Notes under the pieces: generated by a model
Databases searched by the model: none
Told to the model about the DNA's origin: nothing
The model's input: the letters and a program-made list of their open reading frames with translations, nothing else
Shown here: piece after piece, positions 26,810-52,466 of the stretch
Layout: each line of letters begins with the position of its first letter
Position numbering within the stretch: position 1 is the stretch's first letter
Translations under genes and position numbers: made by a program
Source of the DNA: Thiomicrorhabdus arctica DSM 13458
GTDB taxonomy: Bacteria; Pseudomonadota; Gammaproteobacteria; Thiomicrospirales; Thiomicrospiraceae
Direction: 5' to 3'
DNA: 64,000 bases
NCBI RefSeq assembly: GCF_000381085.1
Contig: NZ_KB905899.1
Location: 310,001 to 374,000 of the forward strand

Positions 26810-27337
26810 TTGGTGCGTTTTATATTAGGGGGTGCTCGGTCTGGCAAAAGTCGTTATGCCGAAAGCTTGGCAAAAACGGCTGAAGAATCAGGTCAACAGG
26901 TGTTTTATCTCGCAACGGCGACGAGTTCTGATCGGCAAAATCACGCGGATACGGAAATGTTGGAGCGCATTAAACGCCATCAAAGTGATCGCCCTAGTCA
27001 TTGGCAAACCATTGAGGTGCCGATCAAATTGGCTGAAGGTTTAGTGGCTTTGGATGATAAAAAAAATTGTATTTTGATCGACTGCTTAACCTTGTGGACC
27101 CTTAACTTACTCGAAGAAGAGTGTTTCCAGGTTGAAAAGAAAGCGCTTCTGAATATTTTGCCAAATTTAACCGCAGACATTATTTTGGTGAGTAATGAAG
27201 TTGGCCTTGGCGTTGTGCCAATGGGCAAGTTGACGAGATGTTTTGTCGATGAATTAGGTTGGCTACATCAGGCCGTTGCAGAACAGGCAGAGACCGTGAC
27301 TTTTGTCACAGCAGGACTGCCAATGCATCTCAAATAG
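26810..27337 (+). CDS. cobU: Adenosylcobinamide kinase / adenosylcobinamide-phosphate guanylyltransferase
   Basis: CobU phosphorylates adenosylcobinamide and then adds GMP, giving AdoCbi-GDP for the nucleotide-loop step. The 175-residue product has the P-loop LGGARSGKSRYAE at the N-terminus, CLTLWTLNLL, SNEVGLGVVPMG and the conserved end DELGWLHQAVAEQAE. Translation begins at TTG 26810 or GTG 26813; GAGGAG (26798-26803) serves either. It is the first gene of cobU-cobT-cobC-cobS. Confidence 0.96.
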   Translation: MVRFILGGARSGKSRYAESLAKTAEESGQQVFYLATATSSDRQNHADTEMLERIKRHQSDRPSHWQTIEVPIKLAEGLVALDDKKNCILIDCLTLWTLNLLEEECFQVEKKALLNILPNLTADIILVSNEVGLGVVPMGKLTRCFVDELGWLHQAVAEQAETVTFVTAGLPMHLK

Positions 27338-28521: not shown

Positions 28522-29214
28522 ATGCGCATTGATCTGATTCGCCATGGAGAGTGTAACGATCAAGCTTTTTTAAGAGGTCAGACGCATTCAATCTTAAGTG
28601 ACGAGGGTCAGCAGCAGATATTGGCTGTCTTGGATGCTTTAACATTCGTTAAAGCCGTCAATAAAACGGGCAAAATAAAACGACCAGGCCTGTTCATATC
28701 TTCACCCGCTAAACGCTGTGCTGATTTTATGAAGTCTTATGTTCAAGCAGATTTAGAGATGTTACAAATTTGGCCAGAATTTCAAGAACGAAATTTTGGT
28801 GTTTGGGATGGACTGACTTATGAAGCCATCCAGGCTCAAGACCCGCAAGGACTTGAATCATATCTTCAGAGACCATTCAGCTTTAACATTCCTCAAGCGG
28901 AGTCTTATCTTGACTTTGAACAACGTGTTCAGAGTGGTTGGGACAAGTTACTGCTCGAAATGAATTCACCAGATATTAATGTCGAGCAGGTGGTGATGAT
29001 GACGCACGGCGGGGTGATCAGAACATTGTTAAAACAGTTCTTAGGTTTAAGTAATGAGGCTTTGTTTCAACTAGAAATAGGCTATGGTGCTCGTATTCGT
29101 TTAGAGGTTTTTGCGACCACATCCACACCTTTTATTCGCTTGGTAGAGATGGTACAAAACCCACTTAATTGTACGTCCCTTAGTCAAACTCAATCATCAA
29201 ACTCTCGGGTTTAA
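28522..29214 (+). CDS. cobC: Alpha-ribazole phosphatase-like histidine phosphatase
   Basis: CobC removes the 5' phosphate of alpha-ribazole phosphate (or of the CobS product). The 230-residue histidine phosphatase has the catalytic LIRHGECN (residues 4-11), the partner arginine in SSPAKRCAD, WPEFQERNFGVWDG and the second histidine in MMTHGGVIR. It sits between cobT and cobS, supporting the assignment over other phosphoglycerate-mutase-like enzymes. A CAGGCCTG palindrome lies at 28685-28692. Confidence 0.9.
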   Translation: MRIDLIRHGECNDQAFLRGQTHSILSDEGQQQILAVLDALTFVKAVNKTGKIKRPGLFISSPAKRCADFMKSYVQADLEMLQIWPEFQERNFGVWDGLTYEAIQAQDPQGLESYLQRPFSFNIPQAESYLDFEQRVQSGWDKLLLEMNSPDINVEQVVMMTHGGVIRTLLKQFLGLSNEALFQLEIGYGARIRLEVFATTSTPFIRLVEMVQNPLNCTSLSQTQSSNSRV

Positions 29215-29255
29215 ACCGATCAAGACTTGTCTAATTTACAGAGGTGTTCAACATT

Positions 29256-29984
29256 ATGTTTAAAAACTTTTTCCTGTCAGTTCAGTTTTTGAGTCGTTTT
29301 CCGACACCACAATATACCTCTATTACAGCAATGGAGATGGGGCGATCCGTTAGTTGGTTTCCAGTCGTCGGAGCCTTGATTGGAGCAGTGTTAGTGGCTG
29401 TGGCACAACTCCAAGTTTGGCTACCACCAGAGGTCGTTGCTGGGGTGGTGTTGGCGGTTTGGATTTTGAGTACCGGAGCATTACATCTAGATGGGCTGGC
29501 AGATACTGCCGATGGGTGGTTAGCGGGAGGAGATCACCAACATGTTTTGGAAGTCATGAAAGACAGTCGAATTGGAACGGGCGGTGGCGTTGCGTTGGTG
29601 GGACTGTTGTTATTAAAGTGGAGTCTAGTCGTCGTCTTAATTGAGTATCAGGCCTGGTGGTTTTTATTGGTTGTACCAATCGTTGGTAGAATTTCATCTA
29701 TTGGACTGATGACTGTGACTCGATATGTCAGTGTAAATGGTGTTGCTGAACAGATGTTTTTGCATCTGAGTAAACCTTTTATTTGGCTTTGGGTGTCTGC
29801 GTTAATCGTCGGTCTATTATGGGTTTCTCCTGGGCTATTCATTGGGCTTTTACTGGCTTGGTTTTGGATGCGTTGGGTGATGATTCGGATGACAGGTGGG
29901 ATGACTGGGGATACCGCAGGTGCTATGACAGAGGTGATGGAGTTGGCATTTATGCTCGGTTCAGCCGTCATCTTGATAAACTAG
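29256..29984 (+). CDS. cobS: Adenosylcobinamide-GDP ribazoletransferase
   Basis: CobS joins AdoCbi-GDP and alpha-ribazole (phosphate) to make cobalamin (phosphate) in the inner membrane. The product has several membrane spans and the family motif GALHLDGLADTADGWLAGG, then VMKDSRIGTGGGVALV and GGMTGDTAGAMTE. ATG 29256, with GAGG upstream, is preferred to GTG 29244. CAGGCCTG at 29649-29656 encodes QAW within YQAWW. This completes the cobUTCS set. Confidence 0.95.
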   Translation: MFKNFFLSVQFLSRFPTPQYTSITAMEMGRSVSWFPVVGALIGAVLVAVAQLQVWLPPEVVAGVVLAVWILSTGALHLDGLADTADGWLAGGDHQHVLEVMKDSRIGTGGGVALVGLLLLKWSLVVVLIEYQAWWFLLVVPIVGRISSIGLMTVTRYVSVNGVAEQMFLHLSKPFIWLWVSALIVGLLWVSPGLFIGLLLAWFWMRWVMIRMTGGMTGDTAGAMTEVMELAFMLGSAVILIN

Positions 29985-41291: not shown

Positions 41292-42245
41292 CTATTTAAG
41301 TACTTGCGTTTGATAGTGCTTTCTAGCCATTTCTATCTTTTGACATAAGTCTGGTAAGGCATTGATTAACCTGGCGGTTGGGCGTTGGTAAAGGTTGTTG
41401 TCGAGTAAGTAGATCTGTTGGTGTTTCACCGCTTGCAAACTGGAGTACTTTTGCCATTGTTTTAACCAAGCCTTCTGAAAGGCTTGTTGACCACCCAGCA
41501 AAAAAACTTGAGCGTTACGTTGTAAAACACTTTCTAAACTGACTTCGGCTGTTAGAGGTTTTAGGTCGGCATATACATTCGTTGCACCACAGATGTTTAC
41601 AGCCTGACTGATAAACTGGGAGCCATTCATGGAGATAATCGGTTGATTCCAAATTTGATAAAAGCTGGTGATGGGACGTGCATGTTGATAGTGTTGACGG
41701 ATCTCACTCAACTTTTTTCGTAACGTATCTGCAATGGCCATTGCATGACGTTGTGTACCTGCTAATTGACCTAAGCGTTCAATCTCATTGGGAATGTCAT
41801 CAAGTGTTGTGACATCACTTTGCAAAACCTTAAAGCCGAGTTCTTTTAGGCGTTGAATGTCTTGTAAGCGGTTGCCTGATTGCCAGCCGAGTATTAAATC
41901 GGGATTGAGTTGAATGATTTCTTCTAAATTAATGGCATTGTAACTACCGATAATGGGCAGGTTTAAGGCGGCTTTGGGGAAATCTGAATAAGACACTACG
42001 CCGACAATTTTATGCCCTGCACCTGCTGAATAAAGCATCTCCGTAATATGAGGTGCTAACGAGATAATACGTTGCGCAGAAGCCGCCGAAGCGGTATTTA
42101 CCGCGTTAGTTTCACTGGATATAATAGCGTTATAAGCAAGCGGTTGTGGATTTGACCAGGCCTGGTGAAAGGCCAAAAAGCAAAAGAGCAAACTCGACTG
42201 AATGCTGAACAGATAAACCTGCTTTGTTTGAAAGCATTTAAACAT
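41292..42245 (-). CDS. btuF: Cobalamin-binding periplasmic protein, BtuF-like
   Basis: BtuF-like proteins deliver corrinoids to an ABC importer. The product has a signal-like N-terminus (MFKCFQTKQVYLFSIQSSLL) and a class III solute-binding fold with RIISLAPHITEMLYSAGAG, PIIGSYNAINLEEIIQLNPDLIL and INICGATNV-like text (here VNICGATNVYAD). The ATG at 42245 is preferred and overlaps the cbiB stop by 8 bp; 42266 is the alternative. No btuC or btuD lies in the window. CAGGCCTG at 42157-42164 encodes HQAW in the leader region. Confidence 0.88.
   Translation of the reverse strand: MFKCFQTKQVYLFSIQSSLLFCFLAFHQAWSNPQPLAYNAIISSETNAVNTASAASAQRIISLAPHITEMLYSAGAGHKIVGVVSYSDFPKAALNLPIIGSYNAINLEEIIQLNPDLILGWQSGNRLQDIQRLKELGFKVLQSDVTTLDDIPNEIERLGQLAGTQRHAMAIADTLRKKLSEIRQHYQHARPITSFYQIWNQPIISMNGSQFISQAVNICGATNVYADLKPLTAEVSLESVLQRNAQVFLLGGQQAFQKAWLKQWQKYSSLQAVKHQQIYLLDNNLYQRPTARLINALPDLCQKIEMARKHYQTQVLK
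42155..42166. repeat. ACCAGGCCTGGT palindrome in btuF
   Basis: This perfect 12-bp palindrome sits near the 5' end of btuF, at the predicted signal peptide end. Confidence 0.9.
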
Positions 42246-43200
42246 GATGGGATCCAATAAAAGCAAAGATGTTGCCTATGATTATGCTAAAAATAAGCAG
42301 ACCATAAAGCAGATTGTCGATTCGTGTACGATTTGATAAACAGTCTATAACATGGGCTTTCTGAATGACTTTTGAGGAGGTCTCATCACCAAAGAAAGCT
42401 TTTCGTTTGAGTTTGCCAAAGTAGATGGTATCGCCTCCCAATTGACAGTTTATATTGAGTGCCATCGCGGTAATCGGGTGGCCTGCATTCGGGCTGTCGT
42501 GGCGTTTACCTTGTTTATAAAAGCCCCATAACGGCCACTTAACATTCACCAACATAATCAATAGGGCGGTCATACGGGCGGGTACCCAGTTAACCAGATC
42601 GTCCAATTTTGCAGATACTTTTCCATAATGTTCATAACGTTCGGTTCGATAACCGACCATTGAATCTAAGGTGTTAATCGCTTTGTAAACTAGAATTCCT
42701 GGCAGACCGAACAATAGTAGATAAAACAATGGGGCTATGACACCATCACTGAGATTTTCGGCATAGGTTTCTATGCCCGCTTTATAACAGTCGCTTTGAC
42801 TAAGGTTTTCGGTGTCACGACTGACCAACATTTGCAGTGCTTGTTGAGGCCGATCTGTATGCAATAAATTCAACACACTGTCGTGTAACATTCGATGCGC
42901 TAATAAGGTGGACGCCAACACGGCTGTAATAATCAGTGTGACCAGACCGGGTAGGTTGCCTAATGACCACTGTAAAAACCACTGGATCGCTAACCCAATG
43001 AGTCCGGCGCTCCCAACAATAAAGAGCGTGAGTAAAGCTCCTCGCAGAATAGAGGGCTGGTAGAGGTGCTTTTCAAAAGCGTTAATGGCATCACCAATCA
43101 GGATGACTGGGTGACGTATGTAAGCAAACTCACCGACTAAGCGGTCAATCAATAGTGCCATAAGCGCAATCAATACAATATCCGTCCCTGAAAATAGCAT
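42238..43200 (-). CDS. cbiB: Adenosylcobinamide-phosphate synthase CbiB
   Basis: CbiB attaches aminopropanol phosphate to adenosylcobyric acid in the membrane. The 320-residue protein has several spans and the family segments LIDRLVGEFAYIRHPVILIG, YAENLSDGVIAPLFYLLLFGLPG, AINTLDSMVGYRTERYEHYG and DLVNWVPARMTALL. Its ATG overlaps the cobD stop by one base (TAATG), so translation is coupled. It is called cobD in the Pseudomonas nomenclature. Confidence 0.95.
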   Translation of the reverse strand: MLFSGTDIVLIALMALLIDRLVGEFAYIRHPVILIGDAINAFEKHLYQPSILRGALLTLFIVGSAGLIGLAIQWFLQWSLGNLPGLVTLIITAVLASTLLAHRMLHDSVLNLLHTDRPQQALQMLVSRDTENLSQSDCYKAGIETYAENLSDGVIAPLFYLLLFGLPGILVYKAINTLDSMVGYRTERYEHYGKVSAKLDDLVNWVPARMTALLIMLVNVKWPLWGFYKQGKRHDSPNAGHPITAMALNINCQLGGDTIYFGKLKRKAFFGDETSSKVIQKAHVIDCLSNRTRIDNLLYGLLIFSIIIGNIFAFIGSHHV

Positions 43201-44315
43201 TATTTAGACTCACTTAATAATGGTTCAGTCGTCATTAACCATCGATTTTGATGCAGGGCTTGAACAAGTTGATGGTTGTTTTCTGTAGACTGAATGGCGA
43301 TGCGGCAGGTGTACTGACCCAGGCCAAAATTTTCACAATCACGAATTAAAATATTGGTGCTCGCTAAGCATTCGACTAATCTATAGGCTTTAATGCGGGT
43401 TCTTACCAAGACAAAATTAGTCATTGAATCTTCGACAGATTCAATCAGGTCACAAGTGCTCAGAGCGGTGATAAATCGCGGTCGTTCAGTTTGCAGAAAG
43501 TCACGCGTGTTCCCCTCGTGTCGTGGGTCGGTCAGTGCCTGCAAAACAAATTGTTCATCCAATACGGAAAGTGGCCAACTTGGCCAAGTCATTTTATCTA
43601 AGGCATGAGCAGCGGTAAACAGAGCACCAATACGAATGCCCGGACAGGCATAATATTTTGTTAATGATTGCAAAATAACCATCTTAGGATGGTGCTTTAA
43701 TTGGCGACGAACACTGTAATGTTCAGAAAAACCAATAAACGGCAGAAAGGATTCATCCACTAAAACCCAACAATTTTTATGGCGTAATAGCTCCAGTAGC
43801 GGCTCTAAGGCTTCTGGTGACTGATAGTGCCCCTGCGGCGTATTTGGGTTGACTAACACCGCAACGCTGTTCTCAGTCAGGCCATGAATCTGCTGCAACA
43901 GGCTTTCAGAAAGTCCCTCTTCGAAACCATGTATGACCTCAATGGTGTTGTCAGAATAGCGTTTAGCGGCACGTCGATATTCGCTGTAAATCGGCGTAAA
44001 GAGCAGGGTGGTATCCGGTTTGAGTTCATTGAATAAGCTGATGATGGCACTTGAAATACCGTTCGTTAACGTAATCTGCTCAAGCGGCAGTTGAAAACGA
44101 TGACCAATAGCCTCTTTAAGCACCTGTTGTTGTGAATCGGGGTAGTGTTGCACTGCAATTTGAGCGTGTCGGATAATGGCTTGCCAATCCACATCTGGCT
44201 GAATCGGATTAATGCTGGCGGAAAAGTCCAAAATATGGGCCAATGCATCTGCAATCGGTGTATTTTGCTCTCTAGCAAATTGATAGATCTGGCCACCGTG
44301 CGAAAAATCAGACAT
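43200..44315 (-). CDS. cobD: L-threonine-O-3-phosphate decarboxylase-like aminotransferase-fold enzyme
   Basis: CobD makes (R)-1-amino-2-propanol phosphate, the CbiB substrate. The fold-type I PLP protein resembles histidinol-phosphate aminotransferase. It has HGGQIYQFAR and DFSASINP at the N-terminus, the Asn/Tyr region VLVNPNTPQG, VDESFLPF and the PLP lysine in SLTKYYACPGIRIG. The ATG at 44315 gives MSDFSHGGQIY, typical of CobD, and 371 residues. The frame is open up to 44459 inside the DUF71 gene, but that part is not family-like. It overlaps the DUF71 gene by 8 bp. Confidence 0.92.
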   Translation of the reverse strand: MSDFSHGGQIYQFAREQNTPIADALAHILDFSASINPIQPDVDWQAIIRHAQIAVQHYPDSQQQVLKEAIGHRFQLPLEQITLTNGISSAIISLFNELKPDTTLLFTPIYSEYRRAAKRYSDNTIEVIHGFEEGLSESLLQQIHGLTENSVAVLVNPNTPQGHYQSPEALEPLLELLRHKNCWVLVDESFLPFIGFSEHYSVRRQLKHHPKMVILQSLTKYYACPGIRIGALFTAAHALDKMTWPSWPLSVLDEQFVLQALTDPRHEGNTRDFLQTERPRFITALSTCDLIESVEDSMTNFVLVRTRIKAYRLVECLASTNILIRDCENFGLGQYTCRIAIQSTENNHQLVQALHQNRWLMTTEPLLSESK

Positions 44316-44991
44316 CTTTTGAAAAATCCAAATAATGATAGCCGTAGTCACCCGTGGTACATAATTTAGCATTGCATAAATCAAGTTCAATCGGCTGAGA
44401 AAACAGTGGGCCATCTGTGACCACTGTATGAAATTCACCGCCTTCGGCACACACATCAATTCCTAATGACTCCAATTGCGTCATCGTTTCTAAGTTTAAA
44501 GATTTGCCTAAAAAATCACTCGGCACTTTATCTGGCAAAATGGCGATAATCGTCGCTTTAAAGCCAGCCTCAATGAACTGTTCAACCAGCCCTTTATGGT
44601 TTTGGAGCCACAAAGGAAACAGTACCGTGATCGCTGTCTCTTGGCCTTGTTGCATTTGCCAATCTCGATGCGCTTGTAAATCAATATCGCCTAACACCAG
44701 ATAATCAATGCCTTGCTGTTTACAGTCCTGCAAGGCCGACTGGTAGTGAGTTTGATAGGCTGATTTTGTGGTTGCCTGAGTCACGCAGTGTAGGCCTAAT
44801 GCGTGCGCTTGTTGTTCAATAAAGGATTTAGGCAAATGATGCGCACGCGACAGGGTTCCAGTTTCATTCATCATCGTCAGCAAACCTTGTGGCGTATGGC
44901 CTTGCTGAACCATTATATAGAGTGCCAGGCAAGCGTCTTTACCGCCACTCCATGAGCAGTAGAAATCGACTGGTTGTGTCAGTGTGTGCAT
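44308..44991 (-). CDS. DUF71/COG2102 (ATP_bind_4) PP-loop ATPase in the B12 operon
   Basis: The 227-residue adenine-nucleotide alpha hydrolase has the PP-loop SWSGGKDACLALY (about residues 13-25) and the DUF71 signature DVCAEGGEFHTVVTDGPLF near the C-terminus. Eukaryotic and archaeal relatives are Dph6 diphthamide ligases. Bacteria lack diphthamide, and comparative genomics has linked a bacterial subgroup to B12 salvage. Its overlap with cobD supports that link. The reaction is not established; an ATP-dependent amidation or condensation of a corrinoid side chain is inference. Confidence 0.87.
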   Translation of the reverse strand: MHTLTQPVDFYCSWSGGKDACLALYIMVQQGHTPQGLLTMMNETGTLSRAHHLPKSFIEQQAHALGLHCVTQATTKSAYQTHYQSALQDCKQQGIDYLVLGDIDLQAHRDWQMQQGQETAITVLFPLWLQNHKGLVEQFIEAGFKATIIAILPDKVPSDFLGKSLNLETMTQLESLGIDVCAEGGEFHTVVTDGPLFSQPIELDLCNAKLCTTGDYGYHYLDFSKDV

Positions 44992-45026: not shown

Positions 45027-45671
45027 TTATAAATCGAAGCCTTTCTGAGCTTTGATGCCACTTTGATACGCGTGTTTTTCATCCTTTATTTCGGAGACGG
45101 TATCGGCTAAATCACGCAGTTCGGCAATGGCCGATCGGCCGGTGACGACGACGTGCTGCATCTCTGGGCGCTCACTAAGGGTGTTGAGAACCACATCTTT
45201 ATCTAGATAGTCGTAGCTAAGCAGATAAGTTAGTTCGTCCAAAATCACTAAATCAAAACTTGGGTCGGTAAGCATTTTAGTGGCTATATCCCAGCCTTTT
45301 TTAGACGTCGTGATATCCGCTTCTCGGTTTTGTGTGTCCCAGGTAAAGCCATCACCTAATACATGCCATTCGCAGTTGGGTTGTGCGTTAAAAAAGGCTT
45401 CTTCACCCGTATCGGTACGGCTTTTAATAAATTGGCAAACCCCCACTTTTTGGCCATGACCTAAGGCGCGCGCCACCATGCCAAATGCAGAGGTTGACTT
45501 GCCTTTACCATTACCGGTAATGACCAACAGCAAGCCTTTTTGGTTGTCGGCTCGTGTAATCGCCGCATCAATTTGGGCTTTTTTGCGTTCCATGCGCACT
45601 TTGTGATAATGGTTTTTTCGTTGCTCATCAGACATCTGTTGAATCATTTTCTTGGTTATCGTTTGCGTCAT
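45027..45671 (-). CDS. cobO: Cob(I)yrinic acid a,c-diamide adenosyltransferase
   Basis: CobO/BtuR adenosylates reduced corrinoids. The product has the P-loop VITGNGKGKSTSAFGMVARAL, then GVCQFIKS, WDTQNREAD and LVILDELTYLLSYDYL, and ends in ISEIKDEKHAY-like text (VSEIKDEKHAYQSGIKAQKG), all BtuR-type. The ATG at 45671 has AAGGA 11 bases ahead; the frame is open to 45740, but those residues are not family-like. It lies 102 bp after the cobQ-bluB gene. Confidence 0.95.
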   Translation of the reverse strand: MTQTITKKMIQQMSDEQRKNHYHKVRMERKKAQIDAAITRADNQKGLLLVITGNGKGKSTSAFGMVARALGHGQKVGVCQFIKSRTDTGEEAFFNAQPNCEWHVLGDGFTWDTQNREADITTSKKGWDIATKMLTDPSFDLVILDELTYLLSYDYLDKDVVLNTLSERPEMQHVVVTGRSAIAELRDLADTVSEIKDEKHAYQSGIKAQKGFDL

Positions 45672-45773: not shown

Positions 45774-48017
45774 TCATAAATTTTTGTTAATTTCAGGGGT
45801 ATGATTTTCGGATGTATCGCCCTGGCGCCATTGATTAAAAAATATGACCTGTTCTTTGGGCAAGGGATGACGCCAATTTTCTTGTTCCAACATCGGTTTT
45901 TTATAAAATTCCGCGACATGACCAATGCATAGAATGGCAATGGGTTTACCACCATCATACCCGCTTGGAATCTTTAGGCAATCTGCGACCTCTTGTGGAT
46001 CAAAAAGGGAGACCCAGCCGACCCCAATCCCTTCGGAACGCGCGGCCAGAGACAAGTTTTGAATGGCACAGCCAACAGAGGCGATGTCCATTTCAGGCAG
46101 TGTTCGGCGACCAAAGATATGCTGATCTCTTCGGTCAGTGAGTGAGACCACTAAGAGTTCTGCACACTCCAACATCCCTTCAACCTTAAGTGTCATAAAC
46201 TCGTCTTCACGCTCGTTTAAGGCTTTGGCGGTTAATAGGCGTTCCTTCTCGACGATTGTATGCAACGTTTGTTTAAGCGCAGGATCGGTAATGCGGATAA
46301 AACGCCACGGCTGCATCAGCCCAACACTCGGTGCATGGTGCGCTGCTGACAAGAGTCGATCAAACACCAACGGATCAATTGGCGCATCGATAAAGTGGCG
46401 CATATCTCGTCGTTGTTCAATCGTTTGATAAACCGCTTCGATTTGATGTGGTAAGAATGCATGATGAGAAGGTTTAATTGTGGCGCATTCTAATGGTAAG
46501 GCGGAGACTTCAGAGGCCTGCAGTATCTCAAAGAGTGAGTCCATATCAAGATGTGATTCAAACGTATCGGCTAAACGCTCAAGCTGAATTTCTCTTATCT
46601 GATCGATATCAATGAGGGTTTTAGAACACAGTCCCGACCAGTTTAACAGAGCTTGTAATGCAGGTGCCTGGTCAAACAGACCGTGTAAATAACTGACAAG
46701 CAGCTGATTGTCACCGGATATGGCTCCATCGGTTTGCCCGTTATCCAGGTGAATAGCCGCCTGAGTAGGAAAACCTGTCGTTTCACCGGCGTGGATTTCA
46801 TAACCGCCAACCGTTATGACCATTTGTTTATCTATGGCATTAATGGCTAACTGCCCGCTCACGTTAGTGAGTGTTTTATGCGGTTTTAGAGTGGTTTCAT
46901 AATCAAACAGACCCAGGCCTGCTTGTTTGGTGACTTGACCTTCGATACCGTCAGGATCATGAATCCATTGCCCCAACATTTGCAGTCCACCACAAATGCC
47001 AATGACTTTACCCCCATAACGCAGATGTTTTTGTATGGCTTGTGGCCAACCTTGGCTTTTTAACCACTGCAAATCGCTAATGACATTTTTACTGCCGGGT
47101 AAAATAATCAGGTCGGCATCGGGAATAAAAGAAGGGGTATCTTGCTGATACTGGATGTATTGAACATCAACCTCAGGATGCAATCTCAATGGTTCAAAAT
47201 CAGTGTGGTTACTCATATGTGGCAGCAGTGGAATAATGACCTTGAACTTCGGTCGAAGGTCGGTTTGTGATTCCGCCTTCTCAGATTGAGACAGCGCATC
47301 TTCAGCATCCAGATGCAGTCCATGGAGATAGGGTAAAACGCCTAATACCGGTTTGCCAGTTTTCGATTCTAACCAAGATAGTCCATCTTTCAACAGTTTA
47401 ATGTCACCACGAAAACGATTGATGACAAAGCCTTTAATGCGGGCTTGTTCAGATTCTGTTAGGCAGGCCAGTGTGCCGATAATGTGAGCAAATACGCCGC
47501 CTTTGTCAATATCGGCAATGAGAATGACCGGGCAATCCACTTGCTCGGCAAAGCCCATATTGGCGATATCATTTTCTCTTAAATTGACTTCGGCTGGGCT
47601 ACCAGCACCTTCCACCAAAATGGTGTGAAACTGCTGAGAGAGAATATCGAAAGATTCCAGTACCGCCTGATTGGCGAGCGGTTTGTAATGATGATAGTCC
47701 ATCGCGTTTAAATTGCCCACGCTATGGCCTTGTAGAATAACTTGTGCGCCGGTATCACTATTGGGTTTAAGTAAGACTGGATTCATATGCACAGAAAGGG
47801 GCACTTTGGCGGCCATGGCTTGCAGGGCTTGTGCTCGTCCAATTTCGCCGCCATCGGCCGTTACGGCACTGTTGAGTGCCATGTTTTGTGGTTTGAACGG
47901 CGCTACCGAAAGGCCGCGCCGATAAAATAGGCGACACAATCCTGCTACTAAAGTACTCTTGCCTGCATCTGAGGTGCAGCCTTGAATCATTAGGCACTGA
48001 GCAAGTGATTTATTCAT
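45774..48017 (-). CDS. CobQ-BluB fusion: cobyric acid synthase / 5,6-dimethylbenzimidazole synthase
   Basis: The 747-residue fusion joins two B12 enzymes. Residues 1 to about 500 are CobQ, which amidates four side chains of adenosylcobyrinic diamide. It has the P-loop [23 protein letters not shown], the amidotransferase Cys342 in [11 protein letters not shown] and His445 in YLHGLFD. Residues from about 525 to the end are BluB, the oxygen-dependent flavin-destroying DMB synthase of nitroreductase fold ([50 protein letters not shown]). The frame runs through with no stop or overlap. It starts 3 bp after btuB. CAGGCCTG is at 46914-46921. Confidence 0.95.
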
Positions 48018-48020
48018 CGG

Positions 48021-49862
48021 TTAGAGTTGGCCACGAAGACCGATAAAAAACTGTCGTCCACCATTAGAATAGACATAGTTTGCAGTGGAGCCCGTTGCAT
48101 TCGCAACATTATCGGTATATTGATCATCCATTAAATTAGTCACTTTCGCATAGAATGTAAGGGTTTTACTCATCTCGTAATCGGCTTTTAGATCCGTTAC
48201 AAAATACTCACCAAGTTGCACGCCTGCATTATGATCAGCAGAATATTGTCTGCCAATATAACGCGTTTCTAAACCAAGGTGAGTTTTAGATAAACCATAG
48301 TAATCAACGTTAAGATTCGCAGTATGTTCTGGTCTATATTTTAAGGACTCACCATTTTCATTTCTGGCTGATAGCCATGTAAAATTTAAACCTAGATCTG
48401 TCTGAATCGTCTTAATAGATCGTTTATAACTGGCTTCTATACCATCCGTAAGAACTTCTTGTGCTGCATTCTCATAGTAATAAGGTGTAGGATAAGGCTG
48501 AGGAACGTATTCAATTAAGTCTTTCGTTTTATTATAAAAATAGGTTAATTCAAGTCCATATGCACCCAGGGTCATATCGTAGCTTTGCGTTTTTTCAGGA
48601 ACGAGTGCGACAGGATTTGGACGCGCCAGTTGCGATAGTAAAGGTGCATTGTATGCAGTGCCGTAATTGGCACTGGCAAATACATCTGAATTGAGATAGT
48701 GTTTAACGCCTATTTTTCCGGTAACGACATTATCAAACTTATCAAAGTCGTCATAACGTAACGATTCAGTGACGATTAAATTATGGGTAATATTATTTGT
48801 ATTGCTAATGGCAAACCCGTGGTTCGTGTAATTGTTGGATGAGCTGTCAAACACTTTGCGATTGGTTAACACACTAATATTATCGGTACCTCGATAGTCA
48901 TAACCTAACTGAGCACCTATCTCTCTTACGTTTCCATTATATAGGCTGGAGTAGCTTGGATATTCACGTTCTACCAGGTTATCTCTGATAAAGACTCTTG
49001 TCTTTATGGGACCCTTAGAATAACGGTATTGAAGGCTTTTAATTATATTAGTATATTGATTGGTTGCTTTGTTATCATCAGGTGCAGGCAAATAAAGTGG
49101 GGAACCTGTTGTGCCATCGAATTCGTTGTCTGCGGATGAGGTTTTAATGAACGTTTCAATTCTGTGGTGTTTGGCAAGATTTATTCCAAACTTTAAAGAG
49201 ATATCTGTTTGTTTAAAACCGTCATCTTCAAAGTTTGTATGCGAGATATTGGCGGCTCTAACCGCTGAAAAACCATCGGTATTTAATGTTGAAAAGTGAA
49301 CAACAAAGTCACCTTGTTTATTGCTATCTCCTAATGTTGTCGAAATTTTACGCGTATTATTAGAGCCTATTTGGAGGTTAACAGAGGCTTGGTGTCCGCC
49401 TTTTTTGGTAATGATGTTAATCACACCTGCGGTTGCATTCGCACCCCAAACACCGGACTGAGAACCCTTGATGATTTCAATACGTTCGACATCAGATAAT
49501 TGAATGTTCTCAATGCGAGCTCCACCAAGGCCTGCGGCATCTGTTAAATCGACACCATCTTGCAATATTAAAATATGAGCTTGCGTATCGCCGCGCATAT
49601 ACATTGAGGTCGTTTTTCCTAAACCGCCTGAACCTTTAAGCATAATGCCAGGAACGGTTCTAAGTGCATCCGCTAAGGTTTGGTACTGTTTTTCTTCGAT
49701 TTGTTCAGCGGTAATAACCGTCATGTTAGAGGTCACTGAACGAGCGGATTGTTCTGTATTGTTTGCGGTCACAATAACTTGGTCTAACGAGGTGTTCTCT
49801 GCAAATACGCCAGAAGAGGTGGTTGCAGCTAAAAGTGCTGCGGATAGTGTTGAAAGTTTCAT
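48021..49862 (-). CDS. btuB: TonB-dependent outer-membrane vitamin B12 receptor
   Basis: BtuB imports corrinoids through the outer membrane using TonB energy. The 613-residue product has a signal peptide (MKLSTLSAALLAATTSSG, cleavage near VFA-EN) and a TonB box-like DQVIVTA. The plug domain has TLADALRTVPGIMLKG and VERIEIIKGSQSGVWGANA, and a 22-strand barrel ends in GRQFFIGLRGQL. A cobalamin riboswitch lies directly upstream, and cob genes follow on the same strand, so B12 is the probable ligand. Confidence 0.94.
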   Translation of the reverse strand: MKLSTLSAALLAATTSSGVFAENTSLDQVIVTANNTEQSARSVTSNMTVITAEQIEEKQYQTLADALRTVPGIMLKGSGGLGKTTSMYMRGDTQAHILILQDGVDLTDAAGLGGARIENIQLSDVERIEIIKGSQSGVWGANATAGVINIITKKGGHQASVNLQIGSNNTRKISTTLGDSNKQGDFVVHFSTLNTDGFSAVRAANISHTNFEDDGFKQTDISLKFGINLAKHHRIETFIKTSSADNEFDGTTGSPLYLPAPDDNKATNQYTNIIKSLQYRYSKGPIKTRVFIRDNLVEREYPSYSSLYNGNVREIGAQLGYDYRGTDNISVLTNRKVFDSSSNNYTNHGFAISNTNNITHNLIVTESLRYDDFDKFDNVVTGKIGVKHYLNSDVFASANYGTAYNAPLLSQLARPNPVALVPEKTQSYDMTLGAYGLELTYFYNKTKDLIEYVPQPYPTPYYYENAAQEVLTDGIEASYKRSIKTIQTDLGLNFTWLSARNENGESLKYRPEHTANLNVDYYGLSKTHLGLETRYIGRQYSADHNAGVQLGEYFVTDLKADYEMSKTLTFYAKVTNLMDDQYTDNVANATGSTANYVYSNGGRQFFIGLRGQL

Positions 49863-50024
49863 GATTTTCCTTCGTAATTAAGTACATTACAAAGGCAAGA
49901 CGGACTTGAGGGATGCTGTGGTTGACACAGGCATGTGCAAGCAAAGATAAAATTTGAGATTTACCTTCCGTATTACCCACCGTAATCGGTTGCGAGGGAG
50001 TGTTCCAGGTAAACACTCACTCAA

Positions 50025-50185
50025 CTTTTCAGGCCGGTATCCGGGCTTAAGAGCAATTCACAAACGCCTTCTCAGAACACAGTTCCAATGGCTTTCTTGC
50101 TTGATTTTCTCTATCACCGTTGCGGGGGCAGCGTTGGATTTAAAACATGAATCGTTTTTTTACCAAACTTCCCGTTTAACTTCGA
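50025..50185 (-). promoter_or_regulatory. Cobalamin (adenosylcobalamin) riboswitch upstream of btuB
   Basis: Read on the minus strand, the aptamer has GGGAAGTTTGGT near 50173-50162, the conserved core GCTGCCCCCGCAACGG at 50132-50117 and the 3' element AGCCCGGATACCGGCCTG at about 50047-50030. These match the B12 riboswitch layout. Between it and btuB a hairpin GAGTGTT/AACACTC (about 50021-49999) may be part of the expression platform. When B12 is abundant, btuB and the downstream cob genes should be repressed. Confidence 0.93.
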
Positions 50186-50281
50186 TCGCTTTTAAAATTC
50201 ATTAAAAGGAGTCAAAGCACCTGAAAGGATGGAATTCTACTGTGTTGAACTGAAATGGCAAGTATTAAATGTTCTAGGATT

Positions 50282-51080: not shown

Positions 51081-52466
51081 TTACCAGAGATTACAGTAAC
51101 TCCAAGCTTTCCAACCAGCCAATAGTTGGGACTTTAATTCAGAAAGAGTCAGTTTTGGTTCACGTTGACTATTTGAATTAACCAATTGAAGATGAATTTT
51201 GCGAAGCGCCTTAACGACTCTGGGAGCGTTATAGGTATCGTTACAGACCGTTAATAAGTCTTCCAGAAGGTGTCCCAACGCGCGTTGTTCGATTACTTGT
51301 AGGGCAGTCTGTTGGTGTTGTGCCAGGTGTCCAAAATGTGACGCTGCGCCAAAATCACTCAGCAATACGGAGGCGTCATGATCGATCAATATATTGTGAG
51401 CATACAAATCACCATGACAGAGTTGTTTTTCATGGAGGTGTTGCAGAGCATCCGTTACTTTCAGTAGAATTTGAACCAGGTGTGTTAACGACAAACTCAA
51501 TTGGCTATCAAAATGATCTCGAGTGCAGCTTTCCAAAGTGGGCGGTTGACCTAGATTGAAAAAGTGATTCGGAATTAAGTTCATCACCAAGCCTTTTTGC
51601 GAGACATTCTGCTCATTCAAGCCATCCACTTCTGCCATGATGCTGACTAGGTTTGGATGAAACCCCGCCGTAATACAGGCGTTTAATTCGTCTTGTGGAT
51701 AGCCATCACTGGTGACTTCGCCTTTAAACAACTTGACGGCCACTTCAGAATTGAATGTATTGTCTGGCAGGGCACTGTCTAGCATCGTTGCTTTATAGAT
51801 AAGCCCAGATGCACCTTGCCCTAATAATTCACCTAATACATAATCCTTCAAGGAGACTTTAGGTAGGGAAGACTGAGCCGTATTCAATGTGGCTGTCTTT
51901 CCTAAATTACACAGGGGATTACCAGAAAACGCCAACCACGAAAGCTTAGGCAGATACAGCAACCAGTCGGGCAAGCAGGTTAATTGATTGGCAGAAAGAC
52001 GAACCAATTGCAGGTTCTCGCATTGCGTCATGCTCTTAGGCAGTGTTTGGAGTTGATTACCCGCTAACATCAATTTTTGCAGACGGCTCAATTCCCCCAT
52101 ACTCTCAGGCAAACGGGTGAGCTTGTTATCAGTCAGAATCAACCACCGGGTCTTCTTAGGTAAGGCATTTTCGGCGATGGTGGCAATTTGATTGGCTTTA
52201 AAACCAATCATCTCTAAGTTGGGGCATAGACTTAATACTTCAGGCAGATACTCAAATAGGTTATTGGAGGCAAAAAATATCTTGAGCTTATGTAATCGAC
52301 TAAAGTCATCAGGTAAGGTCACAAGTTGATTGTTGGATAAATCCAATACCTCTAAACTGTCGGCAAGCGTGTAAAGTTCCGTGGGAAAGACCGTTAGGTC
52401 TTCGGCAATCTTCACATGATTCGCATGTTTGAGTTCACCTGATTGTAGTTGCGCCAAAGTATGCAA
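51081..52466 (-). CDS. Leucine-rich-repeat serine/threonine protein kinase-like protein
   Basis: The 461-residue protein joins about seven leucine-rich repeats (residues about 35-205, e.g. LEVLDLSNNQLVTLPDDF and LQKLMLAGNQLQTLPKSM) to a eukaryote-like kinase domain (about 215-440). Kinase parts visible are the glycine loop LGQGASGLIYKA, the lysine in VAVKLFKGE, the catalytic loop HGDLYAHNILID (HGD instead of HRD) and DFGAAS. There is no signal peptide or membrane span, so it is cytosolic. The activation segment is short and the C-lobe abbreviated. The substrate is unknown. Its neighbour is the pentapeptide protein. Confidence 0.9.
   Translation of the reverse strand: MHTLAQLQSGELKHANHVKIAEDLTVFPTELYTLADSLEVLDLSNNQLVTLPDDFSRLHKLKIFFASNNLFEYLPEVLSLCPNLEMIGFKANQIATIAENALPKKTRWLILTDNKLTRLPESMGELSRLQKLMLAGNQLQTLPKSMTQCENLQLVRLSANQLTCLPDWLLYLPKLSWLAFSGNPLCNLGKTATLNTAQSSLPKVSLKDYVLGELLGQGASGLIYKATMLDSALPDNTFNSEVAVKLFKGEVTSDGYPQDELNACITAGFHPNLVSIMAEVDGLNEQNVSQKGLVMNLIPNHFFNLGQPPTLESCTRDHFDSQLSLSLTHLVQILLKVTDALQHLHEKQLCHGDLYAHNILIDHDASVLLSDFGAASHFGHLAQHQQTALQVIEQRALGHLLEDLLTVCNDTYNAPRVVKALRKIHLQLVNSNSQREPKLTLSELKSQLLAGWKAWSYCNLW

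What the first reader, a model, noticed from the sequence alone, without database searches (positions are those of the whole stretch)
44308..44991. Dph6-like DUF71 ATPase embedded in a riboswitch-controlled B12 operon
The gene overlaps cobD by 8 bp and sits beside cobO. Bacteria do not make diphthamide, and a B12 salvage role for a DUF71 subgroup has been predicted from genome context. Its biochemical step remains open. This tightly coupled copy is a good test case.
Basis: partly seen in the sequence, partly recalled or inferred. Interest (0 to 1): 0.65.

Follow-up and report, generated by a model that had tools for sequence, protein, structure and literature searches.

The report
Orphan ATPase gene in B12-salvage operon
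A sulfur-oxidising bacterium that cannot build vitamin B12 keeps a relative of an archaeal and eukaryotic amide-making enzyme inside its riboswitch-led B12-salvage operon; the gene is real and its step is still unknown, but the standing prediction for that step fits the wider genome evidence less well than before.

Summary
The 227-codon gene at 44308-44991(-) is a DUF71/PF01902 N-type ATP-pyrophosphatase (120 bits; Z 25-26 to archaeal Dph6 structures). It shares 8 bp with cobD and lies in btuB/cbiP-bluB/cobO/DUF71/cobD/cbiB/btuF behind a cobalamin riboswitch. It is not Dph6: E188 is H188. A B12-salvage role for such genes was predicted in 2012; I found no experiment since. Added here: (1) no genome of the order (0 of 63) has CbiC, so the hosts are salvagers, and DUF71 is an optional part of a conserved operon (7 of 27 cbiB genomes); (2) the published strict exclusion of DUF71 and CbiZ in bacteria fails: 6 of 49 DUF71 genomes carry both, three in one gene cluster, one of these in the window gene's sister lineage; (3) four Flavobacterium genomes carry cobU-DUF71-bluB/cobT-cobS without cbiB, so forming cobyric acid would be a dead end there; (4) H188 marks every bacterial DUF71 protein sampled, whether near B12 genes or not. 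My modest-confidence reading is an ATP-dependent corrinoid amide ligase; CbiZ-like remodelling remains a serious rival.

The parts
44308..44991 (-). DUF71/PF01902 N-type ATP-pyrophosphatase, 227 aa, SGGKD loop at 15-19, EGGEFH motif at 183-188
50015..50239 (-). cobalamin riboswitch aptamer RF00174
   Evidence: 102.9 bits; same element before btuB in relatives
48021..49862 (-). btuB, TonB-dependent B12 receptor
   Evidence: TIGR01779 244.5 bits (below its cut-off of 599.7)
45774..48017 (-). fusion of cobyric acid synthase (CbiP/CobQ) and DMB synthase (BluB), 747 aa
   Evidence: NF001989 653.5 bits at 8-499 and TIGR02476 229 bits at 525-724
45027..45671 (-). cobO/btuR corrinoid adenosyltransferase
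43200..44315 (-). cobD, threonine-phosphate decarboxylase; shares 8 bp with DUF71
   Evidence: TIGR01140 217.6 bits (below its cut-off of 290.6)
42238..43200 (-). cbiB, adenosylcobinamide-phosphate synthase
41292..42266 (-). btuF, corrinoid-binding periplasmic protein
26810..27337 (+). cobU, second B12 cluster
   Evidence: PF02283 186 bits
27428..28516 (+). cobT (read from its sequence and place; no profile run)
   Evidence: finds cobT neighbours elsewhere
28522..29214 (+). cobC-type phosphatase (read from its sequence and place; no profile run)
29244..29984 (+). cobS (read from its sequence and place; no profile run)

Best explanation
The gene encodes an accessory enzyme of corrinoid salvage in a Thiomicrorhabdus-type bacterium that cannot make the corrin ring. 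It is an N-type ATP-pyrophosphatase of the bacterial, H188-bearing DUF71 family. Shown: family, fold, operon, the salvage-only gene set, and that the gene is optional in an otherwise conserved operon. Inferred from the fold family: it binds ATP at the SGGKD loop and adenylates its substrate with release of PPi. Inferred with modest confidence: the substrate is a carboxylate of an imported corrinoid that is damaged or incompletely amidated, and the product is the amide, as in Dph6 chemistry, so that the corrinoid can enter the CbiP/CobD/CbiB/CobU/CobS tail. It would thereby widen the range of corrinoids the cell can use when B12 is short and the riboswitch lets the operon be made.
For: B12 context and riboswitch. 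No CbiC in any of 63 genomes of the order, so salvage only; cobU, cobT, cobC, cobS and bluB present. Fold: Z 26.2 to PH1257 and 25.0 to ATP-bound PF0828, next best family 12.9. All 53 aligned bacterial proteins keep SGGKD, Q61, Y79, G101-D102-I103, H108, W111, P126-L127-W128, E183, G185, H188, F197. For ligase chemistry rather than hydrolysis: N-type ATP-pyrophosphatases are ligases or transfer enzymes (established knowledge; a reviewer raised the same objection in PMC3541065); CbiZ co-occurs with DUF71 in 6 of 49 genomes and in one cluster in L101, L117 and L168, so DUF71 is not simply a stand-in for CbiZ; four Flavobacterium genomes with cobU-DUF71-bluB/cobT-cobS have no CbiB, so a cobyric-acid product would be useless there; an asparagine-synthetase-type protein sits directly before DUF71 in B12 clusters L168 and L172.
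Against: No substrate, product or ATP turnover was measured. CbiP in the same operon already makes amides, so a second amide-forming enzyme needs its own reason. In the 7-member CbiB clade that holds the window genome every resolved member has DUF71 (4) or CbiZ (2), which looks like replacement. The Flavobacterium proteins sit in another clade and differ at residues 132 and 184, so they may not share the function. I found no paper on enzymatic repair of corrinoid side-chain amides.
Confidence: 0.33

Rival explanations
1. Cobamide remodelling, the 2012 prediction: DUF71 does the job of bacterial CbiZ, releasing adenosylcobyric acid from pseudocobalamin or other cobamides, and CobD/CbiB then rebuild the loop with DMB from the CbiP-BluB fusion.
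For: All 7 DUF71 genomes of the order have CbiB, none of the 36 without CbiB has DUF71 (Fisher p 0.0016; not corrected for shared ancestry). CbiZ sits in the same operon beside cobO in G036 and G040, relatives inside the window's CbiB clade in which no DUF71 was found. The genome has the enzymes needed to rebuild the loop.
Against: The exclusion argument fails: CbiZ and DUF71 occur together in 6 of 49 genomes, three times in one cluster; G036 and G040 have contig breaks between cobO and cobD or cbiB, so absence of DUF71 there is not proven. Most CbiB genomes have neither (18 of 27 in the order; 74 of 85 in the gammaproteobacterial sample). Four Flavobacterium genomes have DUF71 in a B12 operon and no CbiB. 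Hydrolysis would be unusual for this ATPase fold. Co-occurrence alone is not fatal: nearly 20% of CbiR taxa also carry cbiZ (PMC7733943).
Confidence: 0.27
2. Another ATP-dependent corrinoid step, for example on the aminopropanol-phosphate part or the nucleotide loop, giving a product that CobU or CobS can use directly.
For: Fits the Flavobacterium operons, where DUF71 lies between cobU and bluB/cobT and no CbiB exists.
Against: I know of no N-type ATP-pyrophosphatase that acts this way (own knowledge); the window clade is tied to cobD/cbiB instead.
Confidence: 0.18
3. It supplies the linker: it makes or activates threonine phosphate or aminopropanol phosphate for CobD and CbiB.
For: Overlap with cobD in the window and close spacing in relatives; no L-threonine kinase is seen in the two B12 clusters.
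Against: Some twenty cbiB operons of the order, nearly all with a cobD gene beside cbiB, lack DUF71; four Flavobacterium genomes have DUF71 without CbiB; this is not a kinase fold.
Confidence: 0.07
4. The gene is not a corrinoid enzyme; it acts on an unrelated small molecule and travels with the operon.
For: Many bacterial DUF71 genes with the same invariant residues lie away from B12 genes (50 of 80 loci).
Against: Conserved place in B12 operons in Thiomicrorhabdus, Thiothrix, actinobacteria, planctomycetes and Omnitrophota, riboswitch-led in the first two; distant location does not exclude a B12 role in the other genomes.
Confidence: 0.1

Closest known systems
DUF71-B12 subgroup of COG2102 (de Crecy-Lagard et al. 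2012, PMC3541065)
   Same: Bacterial DUF71, H188 in place of E188, clustered with btuF, cbiB and other salvage genes.
   Different: Motif is EGGEFH, not the published ENGEF/YH. In this sample N at position 184 goes with genomes lacking CbiB (25 of 28) and other residues with genomes having it (18 of 21), p 1.4e-7 uncorrected for ancestry.
Dph6, diphthine-ammonia ligase (PF0828, PH1257)
   Same: Fold (Z 25-26), SGGKD loop, H51, E183-G184-G185-E186-F187-T189.
   Different: E188 is H188; Y79, D102, D104, H108 and W111 stand where Dph6 has other residues; misses the NCBIfam Dph6 cut-off.
CbiZ adenosylcobinamide / pseudo-B12 amidohydrolase (PF01955)
   Same: Placed in comparable salvage operons; found beside cobO in two relatives.
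   Different: Unrelated sequence; co-occurs with DUF71 in several genomes.
CbiR cobamide phosphodiesterase (PMC7733943)
   Same: Salvage-cluster enzyme that widens cobamide use.
   Different: AP-endonuclease-2 superfamily, hydrolyses the phosphoribosyl bond and gives cobinamide phosphate.

Membership tests
DUF71 / PF01902 N-type ATP-pyrophosphatase | Profile match above curated cut-off | tested here: met
   120.1 bits against 23.2
DUF71 / PF01902 N-type ATP-pyrophosphatase | SGGKD ATP loop and overall fold | tested here: met
   S15-D19 invariant; Z 26.2, rmsd 2.4 over 205 residues to 2d13_A
Dph6 diphthine-ammonia ligase | EGGE/D-x-E188 motif | tested here: not met
   EGGEFH, H188 in all 9 window-clade proteins
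Dph6 diphthine-ammonia ligase | NCBIfam TIGR03679 equivalog cut-off | tested here: not met
   99.2 against 197.3 bits
DUF71-B12 subgroup | H188 in place of E188 | tested here: met
   but H188 is in every bacterial DUF71 aligned, B12 context or not
DUF71-B12 subgroup | ENGEF/YH motif as published | tested here: inconclusive
   Residue 184 is G, not N; the N form here prevails in genomes without CbiB, so it may be a poor marker of the B12 role
DUF71-B12 subgroup | Clustering with B12 transport genes or cbiB | tested here: met
DUF71-B12 subgroup | Absence of CbiZ from the genome | tested here: met
   No PF01955 match in the window genome; not a property of the whole group
DUF71-B12 subgroup | Biochemical role in cobamide salvage | not testable with these tools
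   needs an enzyme assay or a deletion
CbiZ amidohydrolase | PF01955 domain | tested here: not met
   only PF01902 found

The most novel reading that the evidence does not exclude
B12-linked bacterial DUF71 proteins are ATP-dependent corrinoid amide ligases that restore or complete side-chain amides on scavenged corrinoids, a repair or completion step of B12 salvage for which I found no description.
Probability: 0.25. Interest if true: 0.8.

Novelty: new member of a known kind. Interest (0 to 1): 0.5.

Why it matters
B12 is traded between microbes, and the steps by which non-producers make use of foreign or broken corrinoids decide who can live on what. This ATPase subgroup has been a named orphan since 2012. 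The genus here gives a natural comparison: similar B12-salvage operons with and without the gene, some in cultured sulfur oxidisers. The counter-examples found (DUF71 and CbiZ in one cluster; DUF71 without CbiB) change which substrates should be tried first.

Tried and rejected
Dph6 function: rejected, E188 to H188 and equivalog cut-off missed. Simple CbiZ replacement: weakened by co-occurrence and by contig gaps in the two CbiZ-bearing relatives. Replacement of CbiA: CbiA above cut-off only in three genomes of another genus of the order, which lack DUF71, and no match to that CbiA in the DUF71 stretches; suggestive at most, not pursued. Weak PF03186 matches in gammaproteobacteria (E about 1e-3 to 1e-26): six tested, all nearer to AmpE/PRK07630 than to CbiB, so only matches below E 1e-40 were counted as CbiB. 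Gammaproteobacterial DUF71 genes beside PduO, BtuB or BtuF in CbiB-less genomes as direct evidence for the window gene: set aside, because that clade (36 rows, 100/100) differs at D104, H108, W111 and R132. Statistical test of DUF71-CbiZ exclusion within the order: p 1.0, too few cases. Papers: no experiment on DUF71-B12 found among open-access texts; subscription papers were not searchable.

Full report
OBSERVATION. The ORF, its 8-bp overlap with cobD (ATGTCTGA), the 35-bp distance to cobO and the cobalamin riboswitch upstream of the run are all present. The protein is PF01902 (120 bits). The run is btuB, cbiP-bluB (one fused gene), cobO, DUF71, cobD, cbiB, btuF; a second cluster in the window holds cobU, cobT, cobC, cobS. 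Riboswitch control of DUF71 itself is inferred from co-direction, short gaps and the lack of a strong terminator; an internal promoter before cobO is not excluded.

WHAT THE HOST CAN DO. The nearest named relatives are Thiomicrorhabdus/Thiomicrospira. None of 63 genomes of the order has CbiC/CobH (PF02570), while 7 of 14 control genomes ring, so this marker of corrin-ring synthesis is absent and these look like pure salvagers. The window genome has CbiP, BluB, CobO, CobD, CbiB, CobU, CobT, CobC and CobS, no CbiZ and no CbiA.

DISTRIBUTION. In the order DUF71 is in 7 of 63 genomes, all of the same genus, all with CbiB. CbiB is in 27; 2 have CbiZ and 18 have neither. Operons with and without DUF71 are otherwise much alike. 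In a CbiB tree the window genome lies in a 7-row clade (100/99) with four DUF71 genomes (itself included), two CbiZ genomes and one unresolved; other DUF71 genomes lie apart, so the gene was gained or lost several times. The two CbiZ genomes are broken just downstream of or inside cobO, so they do not prove exclusion. In a sample of 369 gammaproteobacterial genomes drawn evenly from the class, 44 have DUF71 above cut-off, 9 CbiZ, 85 true CbiB (E below 1e-40, counted by hand from the listing); all 9 CbiZ genomes have CbiB, only 2 of the 44 DUF71 genomes do, and 74 CbiB genomes have neither (weak CbiB matches checked). The published statement that nearly all CbiB genomes carry CbiZ or DUF71-B12 (PMC3541065) therefore does not hold in this sample.

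ACROSS PHYLA. A scan of 84,980 species genomes gave 384 relatives, of which the best 80 were kept; 30 lie near B12 genes by my criteria (a few of these rest on a single weak neighbour). In a tree the window protein is in a 9-row clade (100/98) with two Thiothrix-type proteins, all in B12 operons. Whole-genome checks of 49 DUF71 genomes: CbiB in 21 by the strict cut, CbiZ in 6: Thiotrichaceae MAG L101, Syntrophaceticus schinkii (a strain, L104), Thermoleophilia MAGs L116 and L124, Planctomycetota L117, Pseudomonadota L168. In L101 the order is btuB, membrane protein, cobO, cbiZ, cbiP, DUF71; CbiZ domains were confirmed by Pfam (110.6, 174.4 and 182.1 bits for L101, L117, L168). The strict anti-correlation in bacteria reported in 2012 is thus broken. 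Four of five Flavobacterium genomes with cobU-DUF71-bluB/cobT-cobS have no CbiB (L126, L161, L162, L170; L152 has one). Their DUF71 keeps every invariant residue of the 53-protein alignment but belongs to a Bacteroidota clade most of whose members lie away from B12 genes.

RESIDUES. H188 (Dph6: E188) is invariant in all bacterial proteins aligned, with or without B12 context; it is a mark of the bacterial family, not of B12. The residue at 184 (G in the window clade; E, A, D, Q or G in most other CbiB genomes; N in most genomes without CbiB) tracks CbiB: N in 3 of 21 against 25 of 28, p 1.4e-7, not corrected for ancestry. H132 is peculiar to the window clade; the others aligned have R. A separate gammaproteobacterial clade differs at D104, H108, W111 and R132; some of its genes sit by PduO adenosyltransferase, BtuB or BtuF in genomes without CbiB.

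STRUCTURE. The AlphaFold2 model has pLDDT 96.3. Best matches are PH1257 and PF0828 (Z 23-26), then nitrile synthetase ArtA and argininosuccinate synthases (Z about 11-13). Those next relatives are ATP-using ligases; a shared fold does not prove the same action.

READING. Shown: a DUF71 ATPase in a B12-salvage operon of a non-producer, optional within that operon. Inferred: adenylating chemistry. For the step itself, three facts speak against a plain CbiZ substitute: coexistence with CbiZ, DUF71 without CbiB, and the ligase character of the fold. An amide-forming action on corrinoid carboxylates fits these and the ancestral Dph6 chemistry, and an asparagine-synthetase-type neighbour in L168 and L172 is in line with it; but no direct evidence exists, and the CbiB-clade pattern still favours a remodelling link. 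I give the ligase reading about one third, remodelling about one quarter.

NOVELTY. The gene is a new member of a published orphan subgroup; the open-access papers found only cite the 2012 prediction. New here are the counter-examples to two pillars of that prediction, the residue-184 association, and a genus-level with/without series for experiments.

Noticed in passing
45774-48017: cbiP and bluB are one 747-aa gene; the same fusion is in relatives G026, G035, G036 and G040, while others have cbiP alone. No paper naming such a fusion was found.
   Followed up: partly
L045:12183-13295, L046:6410-7522, L047:12343-13509, L049:6794-7945, L050:6425-7528: In DUF71-less relatives a MscS-type mechanosensitive channel gene lies directly before cobO in the B12 operon (one member confirmed by Pfam).
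   Followed up: partly
L100:5851-6414, L101:4697-5263, L056-L059: A membrane protein of about 190 aa without Pfam match recurs in B12 operons of related genera; possibly an inner-membrane corrinoid transporter. The window operon has btuF but no btuCD beside it.
   Followed up: partly
L044:12484-13404, L041:13412-14263, L039:5579-6463: A second BtuF-like protein sits between cbiP(-bluB) and cobO in several relatives.
   Followed up: no
L168:3691-4653, L172:9046-9975: Asparagine-synthetase-type PP-loop proteins, 52% identical to each other, directly precede DUF71 in B12 clusters of two distant lineages.
   Followed up: partly
L240, L243, L248, L254, L259: A distinct gammaproteobacterial DUF71 clade lies beside PduO-type adenosyltransferase and B12 uptake genes in genomes lacking CbiB.
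   Followed up: partly
L242:6829-7194: A small cysteine-rich protein recurs next to DUF71 in three gammaproteobacterial loci; a similar-looking one lies near DUF71 in Flavobacterium locus L170:9110-9487.
   Followed up: no
43200-44315: CobD needs threonine phosphate, but no L-threonine kinase gene is seen in either B12 cluster of the window; the rest of the genome was not searched for one.
   Followed up: no
51081-52466: ORF that reads like leucine-rich repeats followed by a protein-kinase-like domain; not analysed.
   Followed up: no
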